Origin: Oceanidesulfovibrio indonesiensis
GTDB taxonomy: Bacteria > Desulfobacterota > Desulfovibrionia > Desulfovibrionales > Desulfovibrionaceae
Direction of reading: 5' to 3'
DNA length: 64,000 nt
NCBI RefSeq assembly: GCF_007625075.1
Contig: NZ_QMIE01000007.1
Span: forward strand, 338 to 64,337
Part shown: positions 7,518-30,207 of the stretch, one piece after another
How the letters are laid out: every line of letters begins with the position of its first letter
Numbering within the stretch: the first letter of the stretch is position 1
Made by a program: the position numbers and the translations under genes
Notes under the pieces: generated by a model
Told to the model about the DNA's origin: nothing
The model's input: the letters and a program-made list of their open reading frames with translations, nothing else
Databases searched by the model: none

Positions 7518-9473
7518 TCACACCAGATTGATGTGGATTACGAAGTGGAGCACTTCGCCGGAGGTGGCGAAATCCTCGACCACCCGCTTGTGGATAACCG
7601 GAGTTTTGAACAACCTGGAGTTCTCGAGCTTGATCAGGTAGCTCGTCAGCATCGTATCGAACGCGTCGGAGTCGCCCAGAATGACCGCATCGAGGATCAA
7701 AACACGCTCGGGCTCTTCCCGCTGTGCGCTGCGCGCCCTGCGCCCCCTCTGCTCCTGCTGCTCCTGACCTCCCTCAGACTCACCGGGTCCCAGATCGAGC
7801 TGCATGTCCGCAATCTTGATGCCCGGAGGCGTCAGCCTTGCCAACTCGCTCACCACGGACAATCCCTCATACATCCGGCTCGCCCTTTTGAGGTCGATAT
7901 TCTTCTGGTTGACCTTTTGGGCCCACTGAATGAGCAGGTTGCGATCCACCTGCGGCTGGTATCTGTTCAACTGCACCTGCAACCCGGCAATCTCGCTCTG
8001 TTTCGCTCCGATGACCGTCTGCTGCCAAAGGTAAATACCGAAGAGGATGACGATGACGATACCGGCCGAAGCCATGATGGCATTGTCCAGACGCCGAACC
8101 TGCCGCTCCTTTTCTTTGGCCTTGTAGGTAAAAAGCAGGTTGGGCGTGATCGCGTTGTCGGAGAGGGCGAGAGCCAGCACCAGGTTGTATTCGAGACGCT
8201 CGGACTCGGTAACAGGGCCGAGCGCTCCGGGCCCCACATATTCCGGCGAGAGCGGATCGAGCAGGTGCGAGGTGATGCCGAGCTGCGTATGGATGAATTC
8301 CATGAGCATACGATTCGTGGTGATCTCGCCGGAGAAAAAGATCTTCTCCACGCGCTCCTTGCCCATGGTCGTCGTATGGTACTCGAATGTCCGCTCCACC
8401 TGGCGCACCAGACGCTCCACAGCCGGGCGGATCATGCGCAGCACATCTTCCTGGCCGAGTTCGCCCCCAGGCTGATCGAGCGACATGTCATACCCGAGCA
8501 GTTTGCTGCGAAGAACGTGCTTTGCCTGCTCCTGTGTCAGCCCCTGAGTGCTGCCGAGCTGCGGCAGCTCATCTTCCATGCTCAGAGAAATTGTGGCCTC
8601 GCCGGTGCCGCCCAGTGAGGAATAATTCTCCATGAGCGCTTCGACCATGCTGTTCGTGCCGGCCTTGATGCCCCGACTGAGCACGATGTGGTTGTCCTTG
8701 AAAATATCGATGCGCGACCAGTTGCGGCCGACGTAGAGATGCGAGTATGTCCGGGCTCCACTCTCCACCCACCGCGAACGGAACAGCGTCTGGATCGCGA
8801 TCGGAGAGATCGTCGCCCCGGCGAGCTTGACCCCCGCTTTGGAGAACAGCGTCTTGAGCTGCTCAACCTGCTTGCGGGGCGTGAGGTACACCATGATGGA
8901 GAGCTTGGGCTGCCCCTTCTCCATCACCTCTTCCTGCACCTCGAAGTCCAGGATGAACTCCCGTTCGTCGAACTGCTTTTCCTTCTTTACAGTCCAGTAG
9001 ACAGCATCCGGAATCTGGCGGCGCGGCACTTTGGGAATCTGGATATGCCAGAGCTCGGACTTGGCCGAGGAAACGAGCGACCAGACCTCATACCCCTTGA
9101 GGGATCCGCAAGTCTCGGAAAGGCTCGCCCTGAGAAACTGCGGAAAGTCTGGGCGATCCGGAGCGTCCGGGGTCTCGAAGGGTACACGGTGAAAACCGAG
9201 GAGCTTCGGCCGACCACCGGAATGATTGACCCGTGCAATGCGCAGACTGTCCGGGCCGATATCCACACCGACCACGACCTTGCTGCTGCTCTTGCGAGCC
9301 ACCCTGGCCCCGCGCGGCCCCTTTGCCGACGCAGCCGCCCTGCCCGGCCCTTTACCCTTTCCACGCTTCGCACCCGCAGCAGCGCCGCCGGCGGACCCCG
9401 CGGGTGCGTCACCTTTCCCGCGGATCACATTGAGAAGCTTGTCAGTGGATGTATCTTTTCCACCTTTGGCCAT
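7518..9473 (-). CDS. PilM-PilN fusion pilus assembly protein
   Basis: About 651 residues joining two proteins usually made separately in type IV pilus systems. After a basic, low-complexity N terminus (about residues 1-60), the first two thirds is an actin-like PilM domain beginning VVVGVDIGPDSLRIARV, with a second nucleotide-fold segment near HLYVGRNWSRIDIFKDN. The last third has a membrane helix (SAGIVIVILFGIYLW, about 445-465), a coiled coil and a PilN-like periplasmic domain. PilM normally binds the cytoplasmic tail of PilN, so the fusion fixes that contact. The ATG at 9473 follows a strong GAGGAG site with 7-base spacing. A longer version starting at 9575 lacks support. MshI of MSHA loci may be arranged similarly. 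Confidence 0.88.
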   Translation of the reverse strand: MAKGGKDTSTDKLLNVIRGKGDAPAGSAGGAAAGAKRGKGKGPGRAAASAKGPRGARVARKSSSKVVVGVDIGPDSLRIARVNHSGGRPKLLGFHRVPFETPDAPDRPDFPQFLRASLSETCGSLKGYEVWSLVSSAKSELWHIQIPKVPRRQIPDAVYWTVKKEKQFDEREFILDFEVQEEVMEKGQPKLSIMVYLTPRKQVEQLKTLFSKAGVKLAGATISPIAIQTLFRSRWVESGARTYSHLYVGRNWSRIDIFKDNHIVLSRGIKAGTNSMVEALMENYSSLGGTGEATISLSMEDELPQLGSTQGLTQEQAKHVLRSKLLGYDMSLDQPGGELGQEDVLRMIRPAVERLVRQVERTFEYHTTTMGKERVEKIFFSGEITTNRMLMEFIHTQLGITSHLLDPLSPEYVGPGALGPVTESERLEYNLVLALALSDNAITPNLLFTYKAKEKERQVRRLDNAIMASAGIVIVILFGIYLWQQTVIGAKQSEIAGLQVQLNRYQPQVDRNLLIQWAQKVNQKNIDLKRASRMYEGLSVVSELARLTPPGIKIADMQLDLGPGESEGGQEQQEQRGRRARSAQREEPERVLILDAVILGDSDAFDTMLTSYLIKLENSRLFKTPVIHKRVVEDFATSGEVLHFVIHINLV

Positions 9474-9605
9474 GCCATATCTCCTCGCCATCCTGTGGGC
9501 CGCCAGTACGTTTACCAAACACAAAACCACATGCCGGCACACACTGATGAGCCGCCTGATGAACACATGCCCCAATGGAGGCTATGCAATTCCCTTCGCA
9601 ACTCT

Positions 9606-9623
9606 GTCTGCGTAGGCGCAGAC
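9606..9623. other. Perfect stem-loop in pilMN leader
   Basis: Seven-base arms GTCTGCG (9606-9612) and CGCAGAC (9617-9623) around a 4-base loop. On the plus strand TTTT follows. On the minus strand it lies in the untranslated leader of pilMN, downstream of the predicted promoter, where it could affect transcript stability or stop antisense transcription. Confidence 0.55.
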
Positions 9624-9638
9624 TTTTCCTGTTATTGC

Positions 9639-9667
9639 TCTTTAATTGTAACCGCAATTAAAGTCAA
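9639..9667 (-). promoter_or_regulatory. Predicted sigma-70 promoter of the pilus operon with a palindromic operator
   Basis: On the minus strand a TTGACT -35 box (9662-9667) and a weak TAAAGA -10 box (9639-9644) are 17 bases apart. A perfect inverted repeat, CTTTAATTG (9640-9648) and CAATTAAAG (9655-9663) around 6 bases, fills the space between the two boxes. A dimeric regulator bound there would block or remodel polymerase. The palindrome is seen directly. The promoter and operator roles are inferred. Confidence 0.5.
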
Positions 9668-10362
9668 TAACTTTTTGTAATGTACAACATGCATCGGCTG
9701 AAAACACCCTCCGGAGGACACCCCTGGACAACATGCCGACATCATTGCCTGTGCGAATCTGCCCACCCAGAACAACCGGATCGTTTTACCCTTTTGAACC
9801 ATGCGCACACCTGAGAGTTGCGTTCCTCGGCATATCACTCAACGCAATTTCAGGACACTGCTTTGTGCTATCGGACGCAATGCGGATAAACCTTACAGAC
9901 TCCCGGCACTTCTCAAGCGGACGTCCACCAAAATCGATCGAACAAACGTCCTATTCGCTTCTCGCTTTCTCCTTGATGAAAGCGGGAGGCCAGTACTAGC
10001 CACATATTTTCGATGTAGCAACCCGAATTTGCATTTGCCAAAGCAACACTGCTACACAAAATCGCAGTCTCAACGCAACAACATCGCCACCAACTTGAGA
10101 ACACCCAACAACACGATAGAGGCGAGCCATGCAACTATAGATAACATCTATGGTTTCCATAGACAATTCAAAAAATAGAATACCCGAAATGCAACTGAAT
10201 TCGAAAACAAAGTCGCACGAATCCGCAACCGTCCCCGCAGCGCCCCACCGGAGTGCGCAACAATACGCATGTGCGCCGTAAATGCCAGGGGATTCACGGC
10301 ATTACGGTCACAACTATGTGGCAATCAGCAGGATAATGGATATAGTGTGCGAATGCACACAC
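9664..10362. other. AT-richer intergenic region, about 700 bp, no supported gene
   Basis: This stretch between the pilus operon and the amidase gene has visibly lower GC than its surroundings. Only short overlapping reading frames occur and none shows a recognisable domain or ribosome site. It holds a perfect inverted repeat, TCTATGG (10147-10153) and CCATAGA (10157-10163) around TTT, and a CCTCCGGAGG palindrome near 9710. Whether it carries a small RNA or regulatory sites cannot be decided from sequence alone. Confidence 0.5.
10345..10360 (-). terminator. Stem-loop after aguB
   Basis: GTGTGC (10345-10350) and GCACAC (10355-10360) around GAAT form a perfect 6-bp hairpin starting 3 bases beyond the aguB stop codon on the minus strand. 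There is no T-run, so intrinsic termination is uncertain. Confidence 0.4.
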
Positions 10363-21275: not shown

Positions 21276-22775
21276 ATGCTCTTCAATTCTCTCGAGTATA
21301 TCTTTCTTTTCCTGCCCATTGTCATTGCTGGTTATTTTATCATCGGGTCATGGTCCCATTCCTCGAAAGCCCAGAATCTCTGGCTCGTTTCAGCCTCCTT
21401 CTTTTTTTATTCGTATTGGAAAATAGAATATTTACCACTTCTGCTCCTGTCCATCACGATCAACTATCTGGTCAGCCAACGCATTCTTGCCAAAGGGGAA
21501 CGTTCCCGGCTGTATCTGGTCCTGGGGGTGGTGTTCAATCTGCTTTTGTTGGGTGTCTTCAAGTATACGGATTTCATACTGGAAAACGTTTTTCTGCTCA
21601 TTCGGGATCCTGACCCGCCATTACTGAATTTCATCCTCCCTCTTGGCATTTCTTTCTTTACCTTCCAGCAGATAGCCTTCCTGATCGACTGTTCCCGAAG
21701 CCAGGCCAACGAACAAAGAATCCTGCCGTATTCTTTGTTCGTGAGCTTTTTCCCGCAACTGATCGCCGGGCCCATTGTACACCATAAGGAGATGATGCCT
21801 CAGTTCGAGGCCCGATCCCGGCGTTCCATTCAGTGGGAGAATCTTTCCCTGGGGCTGTTCATTTTCAGCATGGGACTTTTTAAAAAGGTAGCCATCGCCG
21901 ACACTCTGGCGCCCTGGGTCAATCAAGGCTTCGCACAACCGGAGCAGTTGTCCTTTGTAGACGCCTGGGCCACCTGCTTCTGGTATACTTTCCAGCTGTA
22001 TTTTGATTTTTCGGGCTATTCGGACATGGCTATTGGCGCGGCCAGGATGTTGAACATCAACCTGCCTATCAACTTCAATTCCCCATACAAGGCATACAGC
22101 ATCCAGGATTTCTGGAGGCGCTGGCATATGACTCTGTCGCGCTGGCTGCGGGATTATCTGTACATTCCTCTGGGCGGAAACCGGCGGGGACCGATACGAA
22201 ACTACATCAATTTGTTTTTGACCTTTCTGCTGGCCGGCTTGTGGCACGGTGCGGCGTGGACTTTTGTGCTTTGGGGCGCGATGCATGGCGTGGCGCTGGT
22301 TCTGCACCGATTCATTTCGCGTTCGAACTGGCTTCATCTGCCCCGAGGTCTGGCTGTCGTGTTCACTTTTCTGTTCGTAGCTGTGGCCTGGGTTCCTTTT
22401 CGCGCTGAATCCCTTACCTCTGCATGGGCGATTGGGCGCGGCATGCTGGGCATGAACGGAGTTGCCGTACCACAAGCCATCGCCGACCAACTACAGACCT
22501 TGCTGGGGGTCGTGATCCCCAATATCCAAGTGGCGACAGCCGCCGAACCTTTTGGGATCTGGGCCTACCTTTTGCTTCCCATCCTGTTTGTCGTTGTATT
22601 TTTTCCAAAGAACACCATGGAAGTAGCCCACATTATTGAAGGAGGAGAAAACTCGTTCCTTGGCTACAAGCCCAACCTCCGTTGTGCGGCATGTACCGCA
22701 CTGGCCATGTTCATCAGCCTCCTGAGCTTTTTCGGGCAAGTCACCCGGTCCGAGTTTCTCTACTTCAATTTCTGA
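21276..22775 (+). CDS. MBOAT-family O-acyltransferase (AlgI-like)
   Basis: A 499-residue polytopic membrane enzyme of the AlgI/PatA group. These pass acetyl or other acyl groups across the inner membrane to a periplasmic transferase that modifies a polysaccharide. Typical segments are PLGISFFTFQQIAFLID, QLYFDFSGYSDMAIGAARML, NFNSPYKAYSIQDFWRRWHMTLSRWL and GLWHGAAWTFVLWGAMHG, which contains the catalytic His324. About 11 membrane segments are visible. GC is lower than in the neighbours, as is common for glycan-modification genes and hinting at transfer. The partner gene starts 13 bases downstream. Confidence 0.93.
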   Translation: MLFNSLEYIFLFLPIVIAGYFIIGSWSHSSKAQNLWLVSASFFFYSYWKIEYLPLLLLSITINYLVSQRILAKGERSRLYLVLGVVFNLLLLGVFKYTDFILENVFLLIRDPDPPLLNFILPLGISFFTFQQIAFLIDCSRSQANEQRILPYSLFVSFFPQLIAGPIVHHKEMMPQFEARSRRSIQWENLSLGLFIFSMGLFKKVAIADTLAPWVNQGFAQPEQLSFVDAWATCFWYTFQLYFDFSGYSDMAIGAARMLNINLPINFNSPYKAYSIQDFWRRWHMTLSRWLRDYLYIPLGGNRRGPIRNYINLFLTFLLAGLWHGAAWTFVLWGAMHGVALVLHRFISRSNWLHLPRGLAVVFTFLFVAVAWVPFRAESLTSAWAIGRGMLGMNGVAVPQAIADQLQTLLGVVIPNIQVATAAEPFGIWAYLLLPILFVVVFFPKNTMEVAHIIEGGENSFLGYKPNLRCAACTALAMFISLLSFFGQVTRSEFLYFNF

Positions 22776-24342: not shown

Positions 24343-26628
24343 TCACGCGTGCTGCCGGCCGGTTTCACTGCGCGTGGGCGCGGTCATTCGGCTGGCTTCG
24401 AGGATGTCGTCCAGGGCCGAGAGCTTTTCCAGAACCACATAGAGCATGGCCGCTTCCTTAACCTCGATGGTCAGGACGATCTCCGTGTTGCCGTCCACCG
24501 TGGAGTGGAAATGGCCGGCGTCGATGTTCACACCCTCTTGGGCCAGAAGCGAGGCCACGCGACCCAGCACGCCCCGACGGTTCTTGCAGATGAGACGGAT
24601 CTTGGCCGGATACGGCGTCTCGGTATCCCCTCCCCAGGAAACAGGGATGATGCGCTCCGGCTCCACGTTCTGCACGTTGGGGCAATCTGCCGTGTGCACG
24701 GTCACGCCACGGCCGCGGCTGATGTAGCCCACGATAGTGTCGCCGGGCAGCGGATTGCAGCAGCCGGCGAAGCGCACCAGAACGTCGTCCACGCCCTTGA
24801 TGGAGACATGCTCCGAGGCCTGGGCCCGCCTGGTCTCCTCCGGGGTCATCTCGGCCCGGGTCTCTGCGGGCTTGCCCTTTTCCCTGTGCTTCTCTTTTTC
24901 CTCGGATTTCGGCCTGGCCGGCTGAAGCTTGTTGAGCACCTTGCGCGGGGTGATGCGCGCGTACCCCACGGCGGTGAGCAGATCGTCCGTCCCCTTGAAG
25001 GAAAACTCCCTGGCCAGGTCCTCGAACACGCCTTCCTTGAGCGCCTTGGCCGCGTTGACGCCCATCTTGCGGCCTTCCTTCTCCAGCAGTTCTTTGGCCA
25101 GGGCGATGGCGCGGGCGCGTTCCTCGGTGCGCAGATAGTGGTGGATGCGGGTGCGGGCCTTGGCCGTCTTCACGAACTTGAGCCAGTCCCGGCTGGGAGT
25201 GCGCTGCTTGTCCGTGATGATCTCCACGGTGTCGCCATTTTTGAGCGGTGTGGAGAGAGGCACGAGCTTGCCGTTGACCTTGCCGCCGGCGCAGTGGTCA
25301 CCGACTTCTGAATGGATGAGATAAGCGAAGTCCACGGGCGTAGCGCCTTCGGGCAGTTCTTTCACATCGCCCCGTGGAGTGAATACGTAGACCTCGTCCT
25401 TGAAGAGGTCGAACCGCAGGGAGCGCATGAACTCGCGCGAGTCGCTCTCCTGCTTCTGCCAGTCGAGGATCTGCCGCAGCCAGGAGAACTGCTCGGCTTC
25501 CTTGGATTTGACCTTGGCCTTGTCCTTGTAGCGCCAGTGGGCGGCCACGCCGTACTCGGCCAGCTGGTGCATCTCCTCGGTGCGGATCTGTATCTCTATG
25601 CGCTCGCCGTCCGGCCCGATGACCGTTGTGTGCAGGCTCTGATACATGTTCGCCTTGGGCATGGAGATGTAGTCCTTGAACCTGCCGGGAACAGGCCGCC
25701 AGGCGGCGTGAACCAGACCGAGCATGGCGTAGCAGTCCTTGATGGACTTGAGGATCACGCGGAAGGCGATGATGTCGTAGACCTGGTCCAGCGTAAGGTT
25801 CTGCTGCACCATCTTGTGGTAGATGGAGTATACGTGCTTGGTGCGTCCCGTAACGCGGCCCGGGATTTCGTTCTCCTCGAGCATCTGGTTGAGCAGCCCG
25901 ACGACCTTCTCGATGTAGTCCTTGCCGTGAACCTGGTACTTTTCCACGCCGGCGCACAATTGATTGTACACGTCCGGCTTGAGGTATTTGAGTGCGAGGT
26001 CTTCGAGCTCCAGCTTGAGCCGGTGCAGGCCCAGCCGGTTGGCCAGGGGCGCATAGATGTCCATGGTCTCCTGGCTGATGGCTTTCTGCTTGGGCGCCGG
26101 CATGTGCTCCATGGTGCGCATGTTGTGCAGCCTGTCCGCCAGCTTCACTATCAGCACCCGCATGTTTTCCGCCATGGAGAGGATCATCTTGCGGATATTT
26201 TCGGCCTGGGCCTGCTCCTTGGTCTCGAAGGGCATCTGGCTGATCTTGGTGACGCCCTCGACGATGTCGCCGACCTCTTCGCCGAACTCCTCGTCGATTT
26301 CCTCTATGGAAACCTTGGTGTCCTCCACCGTGTCGTGCAGCAGACCGGCGGCAATGGTGGCCTCGTCCAGGCGCATGTCGGCCAGGACGTTCGCCACTTC
26401 AAGAGGATGGGAGAGATAGGGCTCGCCCGAGCGCCGGGTCTGCCCGGCATGGGCGGCCGCGGAGAAGACGTACGCCTTCTGGATGACGTCCACGCCGGAT
26501 TCGGGCAGGTACGTGCGGACCTTTTCGAGAATTTCGCCGATGCGCACGATTGGCCGTGCGGCCGGGATCTTCGCCTCGCTCGTTGTGCATGCGGCGGTCT
26601 GTGCTGAATTGGAGGTGTCGTGAGCCAT
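24343..26628 (-). CDS. rel: Bifunctional (p)ppGpp synthetase/hydrolase (Rel/SpoT)
   Basis: About 761 residues controlling the stringent response. The HD hydrolase domain is intact (HAGQTRRSGEPYLSHPLEVA and LLHDTVEDT). The synthetase domain has GRFKDYISMPKANMYQSLHTT and EIQIRTEEMHQLAEYG, where RxKD rather than ExDD fits a bifunctional enzyme. A TGS domain (VFTPRGDVKELPEGATPVDFAY), a conserved-cysteine region and a C-terminal ACT domain follow. The ATG at 26628 with a CAGGG site is preferred to a TTG at 26664. It is monocistronic here, convergent with the SGNH gene, and its upstream region holds foldable RNA elements. Confidence 0.95.
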   Translation of the reverse strand: MAHDTSNSAQTAACTTSEAKIPAARPIVRIGEILEKVRTYLPESGVDVIQKAYVFSAAAHAGQTRRSGEPYLSHPLEVANVLADMRLDEATIAAGLLHDTVEDTKVSIEEIDEEFGEEVGDIVEGVTKISQMPFETKEQAQAENIRKMILSMAENMRVLIVKLADRLHNMRTMEHMPAPKQKAISQETMDIYAPLANRLGLHRLKLELEDLALKYLKPDVYNQLCAGVEKYQVHGKDYIEKVVGLLNQMLEENEIPGRVTGRTKHVYSIYHKMVQQNLTLDQVYDIIAFRVILKSIKDCYAMLGLVHAAWRPVPGRFKDYISMPKANMYQSLHTTVIGPDGERIEIQIRTEEMHQLAEYGVAAHWRYKDKAKVKSKEAEQFSWLRQILDWQKQESDSREFMRSLRFDLFKDEVYVFTPRGDVKELPEGATPVDFAYLIHSEVGDHCAGGKVNGKLVPLSTPLKNGDTVEIITDKQRTPSRDWLKFVKTAKARTRIHHYLRTEERARAIALAKELLEKEGRKMGVNAAKALKEGVFEDLAREFSFKGTDDLLTAVGYARITPRKVLNKLQPARPKSEEKEKHREKGKPAETRAEMTPEETRRAQASEHVSIKGVDDVLVRFAGCCNPLPGDTIVGYISRGRGVTVHTADCPNVQNVEPERIIPVSWGGDTETPYPAKIRLICKNRRGVLGRVASLLAQEGVNIDAGHFHSTVDGNTEIVLTIEVKEAAMLYVVLEKLSALDDILEASRMTAPTRSETGRQHA

Positions 26629-26670
26629 GTAACCCTGATACGCGCAAAGACGCACTTTCTTCAAGTCATA

Positions 26671-26717
26671 CCGGGGAACGGCGGGGATACCCCCCCTGTA
26701 ACAGCGCCGTTTTCCGG
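26671..26717. other. Three-way-junction-like foldable element upstream of rel
   Basis: On the plus strand, 26671-26683 pairs with 26705-26717 over 13 bp with two G-U pairs. Two mini-hairpins sit inside it: GGG/CCC around 26684-26692 and CTG/CAG at 26696-26704. Transcribed from the minus strand, the same DNA would lie in the rel leader, but the two G-U pairs would become A-C mismatches. The fold is therefore better on the plus strand. Confidence 0.5.
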
Positions 26718-26722
26718 AAATG

Positions 26723-26750
26723 TTGCCAAATTGCCAAAATACAGTAGAAT
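26723..26750 (+). promoter_or_regulatory. Strong predicted sigma-70 promoter
   Basis: TTGCCA (26723-26728, five of six matches to TTGACA) and TAGAAT (26745-26750, five of six to TATAAT) are separated by 16 bases. Transcription would begin near 26757, at the start of the structured element at 26752-26829. Confidence 0.65.
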
Positions 26751-26751
26751 G

Positions 26752-26829
26752 GGCGACTGCAACCCGCTTGCCCGGAGTCTTCCCGTGGGGGACTGTGCAG
26801 AATCACACACTCGGGTTGCAAAATTCGCC
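26752..26829 (+). ncRNA. Candidate structured RNA (leader of the helicase gene or independent small RNA)
   Basis: GGCGA (26752-26756) pairs with TCGCC (26825-26829), and TGCAACCCG (26758-26766) pairs perfectly with CGGGTTGCA (26812-26820), giving a closing stem of about 14 bp. Inside are AGTC/GACT with CCC/GGG (26776-26794) and a small GTG/CAC hairpin. A good sigma-70 promoter lies directly upstream. I see no T-run terminator, so it may be the leader of the helicase gene at 26992. It matches no riboswitch or small-RNA class that I recognise. The rest of 26629-26991 shows no gene. Confidence 0.45.
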
Positions 26830-26991
26830 TTCTTCATCTACGAAGAAAAATGGCCCGATACAGTGTTTTACCCATGCCGACAAACGCAGCACACCGAACC
26901 CACGAATCCGGCAGCTCCCTGGTCTCGCGCGCATGTACGGCACTCGACAGCGTCGCACTCGTCTATGTGTACGCCTTGAAGGAGCAGTCTA

Positions 26992-29900
26992 TTGTCTATG
27001 GATAAAGGCGAAGAGAGTCTGGTCAAGAGCCTGCTCAACGATTTCGTCAGCGACTCGATCCCCGAATACCTCCTCGAAGGTTCCCAGTATATCCTGGCCA
27101 ACGGCGGCGTGCAGAAGCTCTCCCTCAAGAAGGGCGACACCTTCTGGGAAATAAACGGGAACATTCAGGGCGAGGATTTCCAGGTCTATTCTCCCGAGAT
27201 TTCGATCAATCTCAAGGAGAATCGGATCAGCTACTACTGCAATTGCCCCGATTCGTTCTCCGGGGTGTGCAGGCATATCGGCGCCACGGCGCTCAAGTTC
27301 CTGAGTTCCATGGAGTCCCGGGACGAGGACCAGGCCCCGACCAAACCCAAAACCGAATGGCGCCAGGTCTTCCGCTCGTTCTTCGCCACCGAGCCCGAGC
27401 CCGAAGCCGGCCGCCATTACCTCATCTACCGCTTCTACCCGGAACCGGGACGGTTGCAGGTCGCCTTCTTCCGTGCGCGGCAGAACAAGTCCGGCCTGTC
27501 CACGGTGCAGAACGAGGTAACCCTCGAACAGATCATCAACAACCCGGACTGGGCCGAGAACGCGCCCCTGCTCCCCAAGGTGGCCGAGCAGGTGGGCCGC
27601 TACATCGACTACTTCGGCCACAGGGTGGATATACCGGACGGCCTGCTCGCCTGGTTTTTCCGGGCACTTCGGCGCGAGTTCTATCTGTTCTGGCGCGATA
27701 CCGAGCAACCCTGCCGGGTGGAGCGCAAGACCATGCGGCTCATGCTCACCCCGCGGCTGGAAGAGGAAGGCCTGCGATTGGAGGTGCTGCTCGGACGCGA
27801 AGGCAAGCCGCCCTTCCCCATCCAGGGCCAGGAGGCCTACTTCTACGGACAGATGCCCATCTGGGTCTGCTGGAACAAGGCCTTCTACCCGGTGCAGACG
27901 GGTCTCGAACCCCAACTCATCCAGGAAATCGTGGCCGAACCGCCCATCATCGCCCATACGGATATATCCGAATTCCTGGACCGCGTCTGGACCAGGCTCC
28001 CGGCTTCCGAACTGCACGGGCAGGAAGAGTTCCTGGAGCAGATGAAGCCTATCTTCGTCCCGGCCACGTACAATCCCAAGCTTTTTCTGGACGAAGAAGG
28101 CAGCCTGCTCACTCTGCAGATAGAAAACACCTATGATACCGAGCATGGCGAAATCTCCCTGCCCGGCCCCAACCCGGATCTCCAGACCGGCAGCTATCAG
28201 AGCGAGGGCAAAGCCTACCTCATCCGCCGCAACCAGGAAGCCGAGGCGGCGCTGACCCAGAAACTCCAGGACATGAACTTCCAGCCTCGCTCCAACGCCA
28301 TCTGGTTCCTGGAGCCGGAAGAAGCCATAGCCTTCCTGCTGGACGCCTACCCCTCGCTGGTGCAGGAGTACCGCGTATACGGCGAGAAGAACCTGACCCG
28401 CTACAAGGTCCGGCTCACACAACCCGTGATTACCGCCGAGGTTGAATCCAACGAAGACGAGAAGTGGTTCGAGCTCGACCTCGCCGTGGAATACGACGAG
28501 CAGCGCGTGCCCATCGAGAAGATCTGGGAGGCCTGGACACAGGGCAAGCGCTACGTCCAGCTCAAGGACGGCTCCTATACGTCCCTGCCCGAAAGCTGGC
28601 TGGAGAAGCTGGGCCACAAGCTGCGCAGCCTGGGGCTCGATCCGGACAAGCCGCCCCAGAAGCAATTCAAGCAGTTCGAGGCGCCGGTGCTGGACAAGAT
28701 TCTGGACGACGTCCCTCACGCCGTGACAGACACGTTCTGGGACAACCTGCGCACCAAGATACACTCCTTCAAGGAAATCAAGCAGCTCACCACGCCCAAG
28801 GACCTCAACGCCGAGCTGCGTCCCTACCAGGTCCAGGGGTTGTCGTTCCTCAACTTCCTTAAGGAGTACGGATTCGGCGGCATCCTGGCGGACGAGATGG
28901 GGCTGGGAAAAACAGTGCAGACCCTCGCCTTTCTACTGCACCTCCACTCCAAAGGCGTCACCGGCCCCAACCTTATCGTTGTGCCCACGTCGGTCCTGCC
29001 CAACTGGGAGCGCGAGGCCGAGAAGTTCGCGCCGCAACTCTCGCGGCTGGTCATCTACGGCACCCGCCGGGAAGGGTTGTTCAAGAAGATCAAGAAATCG
29101 AACATCGTCGTCACCACGTACGCCCTGCTGCGGCGCGACCTGGAAGAGCTCCAGAAGTACGAATTCTCCACCATCATTCTGGACGAGGCGCAGAACATCA
29201 AGAACCCGAACACCATCACCGCGCGCAGCGTGCGCAAGCTTTCCGCCAAGCAACGCATCTGCCTTTCGGGTACGCCCATCGAGAACAACCTGTTCGAACT
29301 CTGGTCGCTTTTCGAGTTCCTCATGCCCGGCTTCCTCGGCTCCCAGCACGCCTTCCAGCGCGGCATCGTCAAACCAATCAAGGACGGTGACGCCGACACT
29401 CTGGAGTACCTGCGCCAACGCGTGAAGCCGTTCATTCTGCGACGGACCAAGGATCAGGTCGCCAAAGACCTGCCGCCCAAGATCGAGAACGTCTACTACT
29501 GCGCCCTGGCTGACGAGCAGATGGAACTCTACGCCTCCCTTGCGAAGAAGCTCAAGGAGCAGGTCCTCCAGGACGTGGACGAAAAAGGCATCGCCAAGAG
29601 CCAGATGTCCATACTCGACGCGCTGCTCAAGCTGCGCCAGATCTGTTGCCATCCGCGGCTGCTCAAGCTGGACATGCCCGGAGTCTCCACCAACTTGCCC
29701 TCGGGCAAGTTCGACGCCTTCAAGGACATGGTCACGGACATCATCGAGGAAGGCCACAAAGTTCTTGTCTTTTCCCAATTCGTCTCCATGTTGCACATCA
29801 TCCGCAGCTGGCTGCAGATCAACCAGACGCCTTTCGCCTACCTGGATGGCGCGTCCAAAGACCGCTTCGAGCAGGTGGACCGCTTCAACAACGACGAAAA

Positions 29901-30207
29901 CATCCCCATCTTCCTCATCTCGCTCAAAGCGGGCGGCACCGGCCTGAACCTCACCAGCGCGGACTACGTCATCCACTACGACCCGTGGTGGAACCCGGCT
30001 GTGGAAAGCCAGGCCACGGACCGGACGCACCGCATCGGCCAGACCAGACAGGTCTTCTCCTACAAAATGATCTGCCAGAACACGGTGGAGGAAAAAATCC
30101 TCAAACTGCAGGACCAGAAGCGCGACGTGGCCGAAGCCATCATCCCCGGGCAGGAAGCATGGAAGAGCCTGACGCGCAACGACCTGGAAATGCTCTTCGA
30201 GATATAG
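26992..30207 (+). CDS. SWIM zinc-finger SNF2-family helicase
   Basis: A 1,071-residue Swi2/Snf2-type DNA translocase. Near the N terminus YYCNCPDSFSGVCRH gives a SWIM zinc site (Cys83, Cys85, Cys93, His95). A long middle region precedes the motor. Lobe one has ILADEMGLGKTVQTLAFL (around residue 637) and DEAQNIKN (around 734). Lobe two has LVFSQFVSML, LDGASKDRF, GGTGLNLTSADYVIHYDPWW and the DRTHRIGQ motif. The TTG at 26992 has an AAGGAG site at 7 bases, while the ATG at 26998 would have 13, so TTG is preferred. Targets are unknown. Bacterial relatives are linked to RNA polymerase recycling or repair. Confidence 0.92.
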   Translation: MSMDKGEESLVKSLLNDFVSDSIPEYLLEGSQYILANGGVQKLSLKKGDTFWEINGNIQGEDFQVYSPEISINLKENRISYYCNCPDSFSGVCRHIGATALKFLSSMESRDEDQAPTKPKTEWRQVFRSFFATEPEPEAGRHYLIYRFYPEPGRLQVAFFRARQNKSGLSTVQNEVTLEQIINNPDWAENAPLLPKVAEQVGRYIDYFGHRVDIPDGLLAWFFRALRREFYLFWRDTEQPCRVERKTMRLMLTPRLEEEGLRLEVLLGREGKPPFPIQGQEAYFYGQMPIWVCWNKAFYPVQTGLEPQLIQEIVAEPPIIAHTDISEFLDRVWTRLPASELHGQEEFLEQMKPIFVPATYNPKLFLDEEGSLLTLQIENTYDTEHGEISLPGPNPDLQTGSYQSEGKAYLIRRNQEAEAALTQKLQDMNFQPRSNAIWFLEPEEAIAFLLDAYPSLVQEYRVYGEKNLTRYKVRLTQPVITAEVESNEDEKWFELDLAVEYDEQRVPIEKIWEAWTQGKRYVQLKDGSYTSLPESWLEKLGHKLRSLGLDPDKPPQKQFKQFEAPVLDKILDDVPHAVTDTFWDNLRTKIHSFKEIKQLTTPKDLNAELRPYQVQGLSFLNFLKEYGFGGILADEMGLGKTVQTLAFLLHLHSKGVTGPNLIVVPTSVLPNWEREAEKFAPQLSRLVIYGTRREGLFKKIKKSNIVVTTYALLRRDLEELQKYEFSTIILDEAQNIKNPNTITARSVRKLSAKQRICLSGTPIENNLFELWSLFEFLMPGFLGSQHAFQRGIVKPIKDGDADTLEYLRQRVKPFILRRTKDQVAKDLPPKIENVYYCALADEQMELYASLAKKLKEQVLQDVDEKGIAKSQMSILDALLKLRQICCHPRLLKLDMPGVSTNLPSGKFDAFKDMVTDIIEEGHKVLVFSQFVSMLHIIRSWLQINQTPFAYLDGASKDRFEQVDRFNNDENIPIFLISLKAGGTGLNLTSADYVIHYDPWWNPAVESQATDRTHRIGQTRQVFSYKMICQNTVEEKILKLQDQKRDVAEAIIPGQEAWKSLTRNDLEMLFEI

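What the first reader, a model, noticed from the sequence alone, without database searches (positions are those of the whole stretch)
26629..26991. Promoter plus two strongly foldable RNA elements between rel and the SWIM-SNF2 helicase
The sequence shows a near-consensus sigma-70 promoter on the plus strand (26723-26750). Directly downstream is a 78-base element with about 14 bp of closing stem and inner hairpins (26752-26829). Upstream of the promoter is a second fold with a 13-bp stem and two mini-hairpins (26671-26717). I recognise no known riboswitch or small-RNA class. It may be an independent small RNA, a helicase leader, or a control element of rel on the opposite strand.
Basis: partly seen in the sequence, partly recalled or inferred. 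Interest (0 to 1): 0.75.

Follow-up and report, generated by a model that had tools for sequence, protein, structure and literature searches.

The report
Helicase promoter with short structured leader
The spot is an ordinary promoter for a DNA-helicase gene, facing away from the stress-signal gene rel; one of the two folds beside it may be a lineage-specific structure in the helicase messenger RNA, the other looks like a chance hairpin.

Summary
The plus promoter at 26723-26750 (TTGCCA-N16-TAGAAT) is very probably real: identical in the only congener held (G001), and the same type of site lies upstream of this SNF2 helicase in 23 of 40 loci read (window and G001 included; 6 of 16 genera; shuffle mean 0.07). 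Both folds exist, but their stability is only in the top 1-2% of same-sized stretches of this window. The upstream fold (26671-26717) is 38% identical in G001 and does not fold there beyond chance. Of the 78-base element, two blocks (26752-26768, 26794-26820) are 82% and 74% identical; G001 keeps 7 of 9 stem pairs with one double change, which random substitution gives with probability 0.15. The best inner folds differ, and the covariation signal is stronger on the minus strand. No convincing copy outside the genus in 199 genomes; no Rfam match. In 12 of 18 genomes compared about 2 kb separates rel and helicase; here 0.45 kb. Best reading: divergent promoter region with a roughly 235-nt helicase leader that starts in a possibly functional hairpin. 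Ordinary; low interest.

The parts
26723..26750 (+). sigma-70-type promoter, TTGCCA-N16-TAGAAT
   Evidence: identical in G001; same type of site in 23 of 40 helicase loci
26757..26991 (+). inferred 5' leader of the helicase mRNA, about 235 nt (start site inferred from the -10 box, not measured)
   Evidence: inference; no terminator-like site in 26400-27200
26758..26766 (+). 5' arm of the 9-bp stem (TGCAACCCG)
   Evidence: G001 keeps 7 of 9 pairs
26812..26820 (+). 3' arm of the 9-bp stem (CGGGTTGCA)
26794..26811 (+). conserved block GTGCANAATCACNCAC inside the stem; role unknown, RNA or DNA level
   Evidence: 26794-26820 is 20 of 27 identical in G001
26769..26793 (+). variable inner hairpin, not shared as best fold with G001
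   Evidence: 8 of 25 identical
26671..26717 (.). upstream imperfect inverted repeat, not conserved in G001
   Evidence: 18 of 47 identical; G001 stretch z -0.4
26635..26664 (-). weak minus-strand promoter-like site facing rel, TTGAAG-N18-TATCAG, identical in G001
24343..26628 (-). rel (RelA/SpoT homologue); ATG at 26628 taken as start, TTG at 26664 possible
   Evidence: N-terminal comparison
26992..30207 (+). SNF2-family helicase (TTG 26992 or ATG 26998 as start; AAGGAG at 26979-26984)
   Evidence: SWIM only sub-threshold, 14.3 against 19.6 bits

Best explanation
The interval is a divergent promoter region between rel (minus) and an SNF2-family helicase (plus). A sigma-70-type promoter at 26723-26750 starts the helicase mRNA at about 26757 (inferred). 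That mRNA would begin with a 9-bp stem (26758-26766 with 26812-26820) enclosing a variable hairpin and a conserved stretch, at the head of a leader of about 235 nt. The stem most likely acts in cis on the helicase mRNA, for example by shielding the 5' end from decay or affecting early elongation; this role is inference, nothing here measures it. The upstream fold is a non-conserved inverted repeat in the spacer between two outward-facing promoter sites and is probably not transcribed from either.
For: Promoter at the stated place, rare in shuffles, identical in G001, same type in 23 of 40 helicase loci, 6 of 16 genera, shuffle mean 0.07. Conservation peaks on promoter (82%), 26752-26768 (82%) and 26794-26820 (74%) against 53% for the rest of the leader. 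Stem 9 of 9 pairs in the window, 7 of 9 with one double change in G001, and the outer stem is in the best fold of both. Core consensus fold on plus z -2.43, 14 of 500 column shuffles as good. Reading frame from ATG 26749 shows no coding constraint: by my hand count on the alignment, 9 and 9 changes at the three codon positions over 25 codons.
Against: Only two sequences of the element exist here, and blastn with the 81-nt element alone does not find G001 at E 1. The kept double change with at least 7 pairs has a chance of 0.15. Best inner folds differ. Core shuffle z is only -1.47 (80 of 1000) and -1.10 (132 of 1000). For the full 81 columns on plus z is -1.24, 56 of 500; covariation is stronger on minus (-3.13, -3.77). 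Helicase leaders of relatives are not unusually structured: mean z -0.15 against -0.03 for control stretches, 33 of 40 loci.
Confidence: 0.45

Rival explanations
1. The conserved blocks 26752-26768 and 26794-26820 are DNA sites, such as operators of a regulator of the divergent rel/helicase region, or a derived form of the minus-strand promoter that other genera have near this place; the RNA fold is incidental.
For: Sequence identity of the blocks is better than the pairing evidence. Other genera carry a minus-strand promoter-type site TTGGC(A/T)-N17-CATA(C/A)T in this region in 11 of 40 loci, 7 of 16 genera, shuffle mean 0, which window and G001 lack.
Against: No other perfect copy of the block in G000 or G001; only four matches with 2 mismatches besides the two loci. 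No good -10 box in the block (my reading; the conserved-site scan lists none there). The one double change keeps a pair.
Confidence: 0.25
2. Chance: ordinary promoter-proximal conservation in two close species, and GC-rich stretches that fold as well as 1-2% of this window does.
For: 25 of 1278 and 20 of 1278 stretches as unusual; chance 0.15 for the stem pattern; no spread beyond the genus.
Against: Block 26794-26820 is 74% identical while its surroundings are 32-53%; minus-strand core consensus fold beats 500 of 500 shuffles, although 9 of 1624 overlapping stretches of the rel-helicase alignment reach that value.
Confidence: 0.18
3. The element is the 5' leader of rel on the minus strand.
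For: Consensus fold on minus z -3.77 (core, 0 of 500) and -3.13 (2 of 500) against -2.43 and -1.24 on plus; the window's single-sequence fold is as good on minus.
Against: No conserved minus-strand promoter-like site above 26831 in the scan of both genomes; the best conserved minus-strand site is 26664-26635, on the rel side of both folds. 26832-26975 is only 53% identical.
Confidence: 0.09
4. An independent small RNA made from the plus promoter.
For: Promoter directly in front of a folded element.
Against: No terminator-like site in 26400-27200, no second copy, no convincing homologue outside the genus at the sensitivity of a two-sequence model, no Rfam match.
Confidence: 0.03

Closest known systems
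Divergent sigma-70 promoter regions of bacteria
   Same: Conserved -35/-10 with fixed 16-bp spacer on plus, and a weak conserved site on minus facing the other gene
   Different: Nothing essential; start sites not measured
Bacterial 5' leader hairpins that stabilise mRNA (for example E. coli ompA; recalled, from no call)
   Same: A stem would begin about one base from the inferred start of the mRNA
   Different: No transcript or stability data; inner structure not conserved; relatives' helicase leaders not unusually structured
Rfam cis-regulatory families and riboswitches
   Same: Structured stretch between promoter and gene
   Different: No match at gathering score in the window; three sub-threshold matches at E 1 to 8.2 in 26600-27010; found in one genus only

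Membership tests
sigma-70-type promoter | -35 and -10 hexamers close to consensus with 16-18 nt spacer | tested here: met
   10 of 12, spacer 16
sigma-70-type promoter | conservation in relatives at the same place | tested here: met
   identical in G001; same type in 23 of 40 loci, of which 3 (g3, g56) lie nearer the gene
sigma-70-type promoter | transcript starting about 7 nt after the -10 box | not testable with these tools
   no RNA data
structured cis-regulatory RNA | stem kept by compensatory changes in relatives | tested here: inconclusive
   7 of 9 pairs, one double change, two breaks in one congener; chance 0.15
structured cis-regulatory RNA | recurrence upstream of the same gene in several genera | tested here: not met
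   only G000 and G001 convincing among 199 family genomes
known Rfam families | score at or above the gathering cut-off | tested here: not met
   0 matches in the window
independent sRNA gene | own terminator | tested here: not met
   0 terminator-like sites in 26400-27200 under the tool's definition
independent sRNA gene | discrete short transcript | not testable with these tools
   no RNA data

The most novel reading that the evidence does not exclude
A young, genus-specific structured RNA at the 5' end of the helicase mRNA (or, on the other strand, of the rel mRNA) that ties expression of an SNF2 helicase to its stringent-response neighbour, arisen after the gene that separates the two in most relatives compared was lost.
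Probability: 0.1. Interest if true: 0.5.

Novelty: new member of a known kind. Interest (0 to 1): 0.15.

Why it matters
Little as it stands: it places the helicase promoter and shows that one of the two folds is not conserved. The side result is a gene-order history (helicase, solute-binding-protein gene, rel in 12 of 18 genomes compared; rel directly divergent from the helicase in 3 of 18), so any shared control of rel and helicase here would be a recent arrangement that can be tested.

Tried and rejected
Rfam at gathering score and at E up to 10: nothing credible. Small proteins from ATG 26749 or ATG 26850: first frame shows 9/9/9 changes by codon position (hand count); the second ends after 9 codons in G001 (read). 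Family-wide 5' hairpin in helicase leaders: tested on 33 of 40 loci (7 had no promoter assigned) and rejected. Remnant of the lost solute-binding-protein gene in the interval: tblastn hits at E 0.66 or worse only; the two better blastn hits fall in the start of rel itself. Second genomic copy: only a 15-nt match and motif matches with 2 mismatches. Mobile origin: no phage match, two matches of about 38 nt on Pseudonocardia plasmids at E 0.09, 0 pattern matches in viral contigs. Inner hairpin as shared structure: can be drawn in G001 (7 of 8 pairs; 2.6% of mononucleotide and 6.7% of dinucleotide shuffles do as well; window 8 of 8, 1.3% and 3.0%), but that shared structure is worth -8.5 against -20.3 kcal/mol for the best fold of G001, so not counted. 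A manual alignment fitted to that structure gave z -4.66, 0 of 500; it is biased and not used. Against my reading of the upstream fold: its two-sequence consensus gives z -1.67 on plus (29 of 500) and -2.49 on minus (12 of 500), but the consensus holds only 4 to 7 pairs. The genome-contig scan gave three helicase loci only, 49-59% identical, not used further. Papers: listings seen (one search found none), passages of PMC11124144 seen.

Full report
Context. The window lies in G000:C7:338-64337. On the minus strand is rel, with HD_4, RelA_SpoT, TGS and ACT domains; on the plus strand a helicase with SNF2-rel_dom, SNF2_assoc and Helicase_C. The SWIM motif is only a sub-threshold Pfam match, 14.3 against 19.6 bits.

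Observation. The folds are less special than they look: in this window 25 of 1278 plus-strand 81-nt stretches reach z -2.91 and 20 of 1278 55-nt stretches reach z -3.0 (the fold itself scored -3.17 and -2.85), and the boundaries of the finding sit at a favourable phase. The 363-nt interval as a whole has z -1.29.

Promoter. Only one congener is held (2 genomes in the genus). Its interval matches at E 7e-11, 69% identity over query 6-196. TTGCCA-N16-TAGAAT is identical there. I read up to 430 nt upstream of the helicase in 40 loci, out of 185 of 199 family genomes that hold it. These are 49 stretches less 9 second copies of the same genomes; L006 was not used because its contig ends, and its genome G078 is present as L039, which is only 246 nt long. 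TTGCC(A/T)-N16-TANNNT occurs in 23 of 40 loci, 6 of 16 genera, window and G001 included, against a mean of 0.07 loci in 30 shuffled sets. In g3 and g56 (3 of the 23) the site lies nearer the gene and may be a second promoter. Loci of one genus are not independent; g50 and g21 supply 17 of the 23. The plus promoter is therefore very probably real and belongs to the helicase side.

Upstream fold. G000 and G001 agree at 18 of 47 positions in 26671-26717, the lowest of the named segments except the inner hairpin (8 of 25). The G001 stretch does not fold beyond chance (z -0.4, against -2.85 for the window in the same run). Against this, the two-sequence consensus is somewhat better than column shuffles, 29 of 500 on plus and 12 of 500 on minus, with only a few pairs. 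A conserved, weak minus-strand site TTGAAG-N18-TATCAG at 26664-26635 faces rel. If it is rel's promoter, this fold lies in the spacer between two outward promoters and in neither transcript (inference).

78-base element. Identity to G001 is 82% for 26752-26768, 32% for 26769-26793, 74% for 26794-26820, 45% for 26821-26831 and 53% for 26832-26975. The closing GGCGA/TTCGCC pairs are thus not kept, and the inferred start site would leave the 5' arm of those pairs untranscribed. The 9-bp stem keeps 7 pairs in G001 with one double change (C-G to G-C) and two breaks. Random placement of the same substitutions keeps at least 7 pairs in 25% of trials, and also a kept double change in 15%. The outer stem is in the best fold of both, but the inner folds differ. 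Column-shuffle tests on the unfitted alignment give z -1.24 (81 columns, 56 of 500) and -2.43 (core, 14 of 500) on plus, and -3.13 (2 of 500) and -3.77 (0 of 500) on minus. In about 4 kb of rel-helicase alignment 9 of 1624 overlapping stretches reach -3.77; 7 of these 9 are in coding DNA and 2 in this interval (one on minus from 26759, one on plus from 26774). The signal is suggestive and does not decide the strand. Single-sequence core z-scores are -1.47 and -1.10. blastn with the 81-nt element alone does not find G001 at E 1.

Spread. A covariance model from the two sequences, with only the outer stem as structure, finds G000 and G001 (E 7e-24 and 2e-22, the training sequences) and nothing convincing in the other 197 of 199 family genomes; five have hits at E 0.026 to 0.45, of which I read only the best. 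The model is narrow and the search used stricter filters, so a diverged homologue could be missed. Rfam gives nothing at gathering score and three chance-level matches at E 1 to 8.2.

Gene-order history. I compared rel and helicase positions in 18 of the 21 family genomes with a rel match. In 12 of 18 the two are divergent and 1.8-2.2 kb apart; in 3 of 18 (G000, G001, G015) 275-451 bp apart; in 3 of 18 far apart or on different contigs. The gene divergent from the helicase is an SBP_bac_5 protein in the one genome tested with Pfam (G088). In 9 of 10 rel loci read, an open stretch of 451-499 codons in rel's direction lies upstream of rel; G015 is the exception. A minus-strand promoter-type site (TTGGC(A/T)-N17-CATA(C/A)T) is in 11 of 40 loci, 7 of 16 genera, shuffle mean 0, including both loci of G015's genus, but not in G000 or G001. 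No remnant of the lost gene is detectable in the interval.

Mechanism. Shown: a conserved promoter site, two conserved blocks, and a stem that pairs at 9 of 9 and 7 of 9 positions in the two congeners. Inferred: transcription start at about 26757, a leader of about 235 nt, and a cis effect of the 5' stem on the helicase mRNA. Main rival: the blocks are DNA sites. The sRNA reading is unlikely. The boldest reading not excluded is a young, genus-specific structured leader linking rel and helicase control.

Literature. The searches made (listings only) showed no description of such an element. PMC11124144 (passages only) predicts Rfam-class ncRNAs in Oleidesulfovibrio alaskensis G20; the word helicase does not occur in its main text. 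Nothing beyond that library was searched.

Noticed in passing
window 24343-30207; L074-L095: rel and the SNF2 helicase are divergent neighbours about 2 kb apart in 12 of 18 genomes compared, with a solute-binding-protein gene (SBP_bac_5 in the one tested) between; window, G001 and G015 lack it.
   Followed up: partly
L007, L008, L021, L023, L031, L039, L049, L050, L051, L057, L058, upstream of the helicase: A minus-strand promoter-type site TTGGC(A/T)-N17-CATA(C/A)T recurs in 11 of 40 loci, 7 of 16 genera, shuffle mean 0; absent from window and G001.
   Followed up: partly
window 26549-26664, minus strand: rel seems to have a poorly conserved N-terminal extension in this genus: relatives start at M(I/V)RI, where window and G001 have ATC or ATT.
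   Followed up: partly
window 21709-21742: Perfect 13-bp inverted repeat with an 8-nt loop (ACGAACAAAGAAT/ATTCTTTGTTCGT) inside the open frame 21276-22775.
   Followed up: no
window 9601-9681: Most unusual 81-nt fold of the plus-strand scan (z -7.0), just beyond the start of the minus-strand frame 7518-9575; no ungapped inverted repeat of 10 nt found there.
   Followed up: no
L009-L016 (genus g50), about 100-140 nt upstream of the helicase: Just after a second promoter-like site the leaders share GCGCTTCG ... CGAAGCGC arms around a G-rich loop; folding z is not unusual.
   Followed up: no
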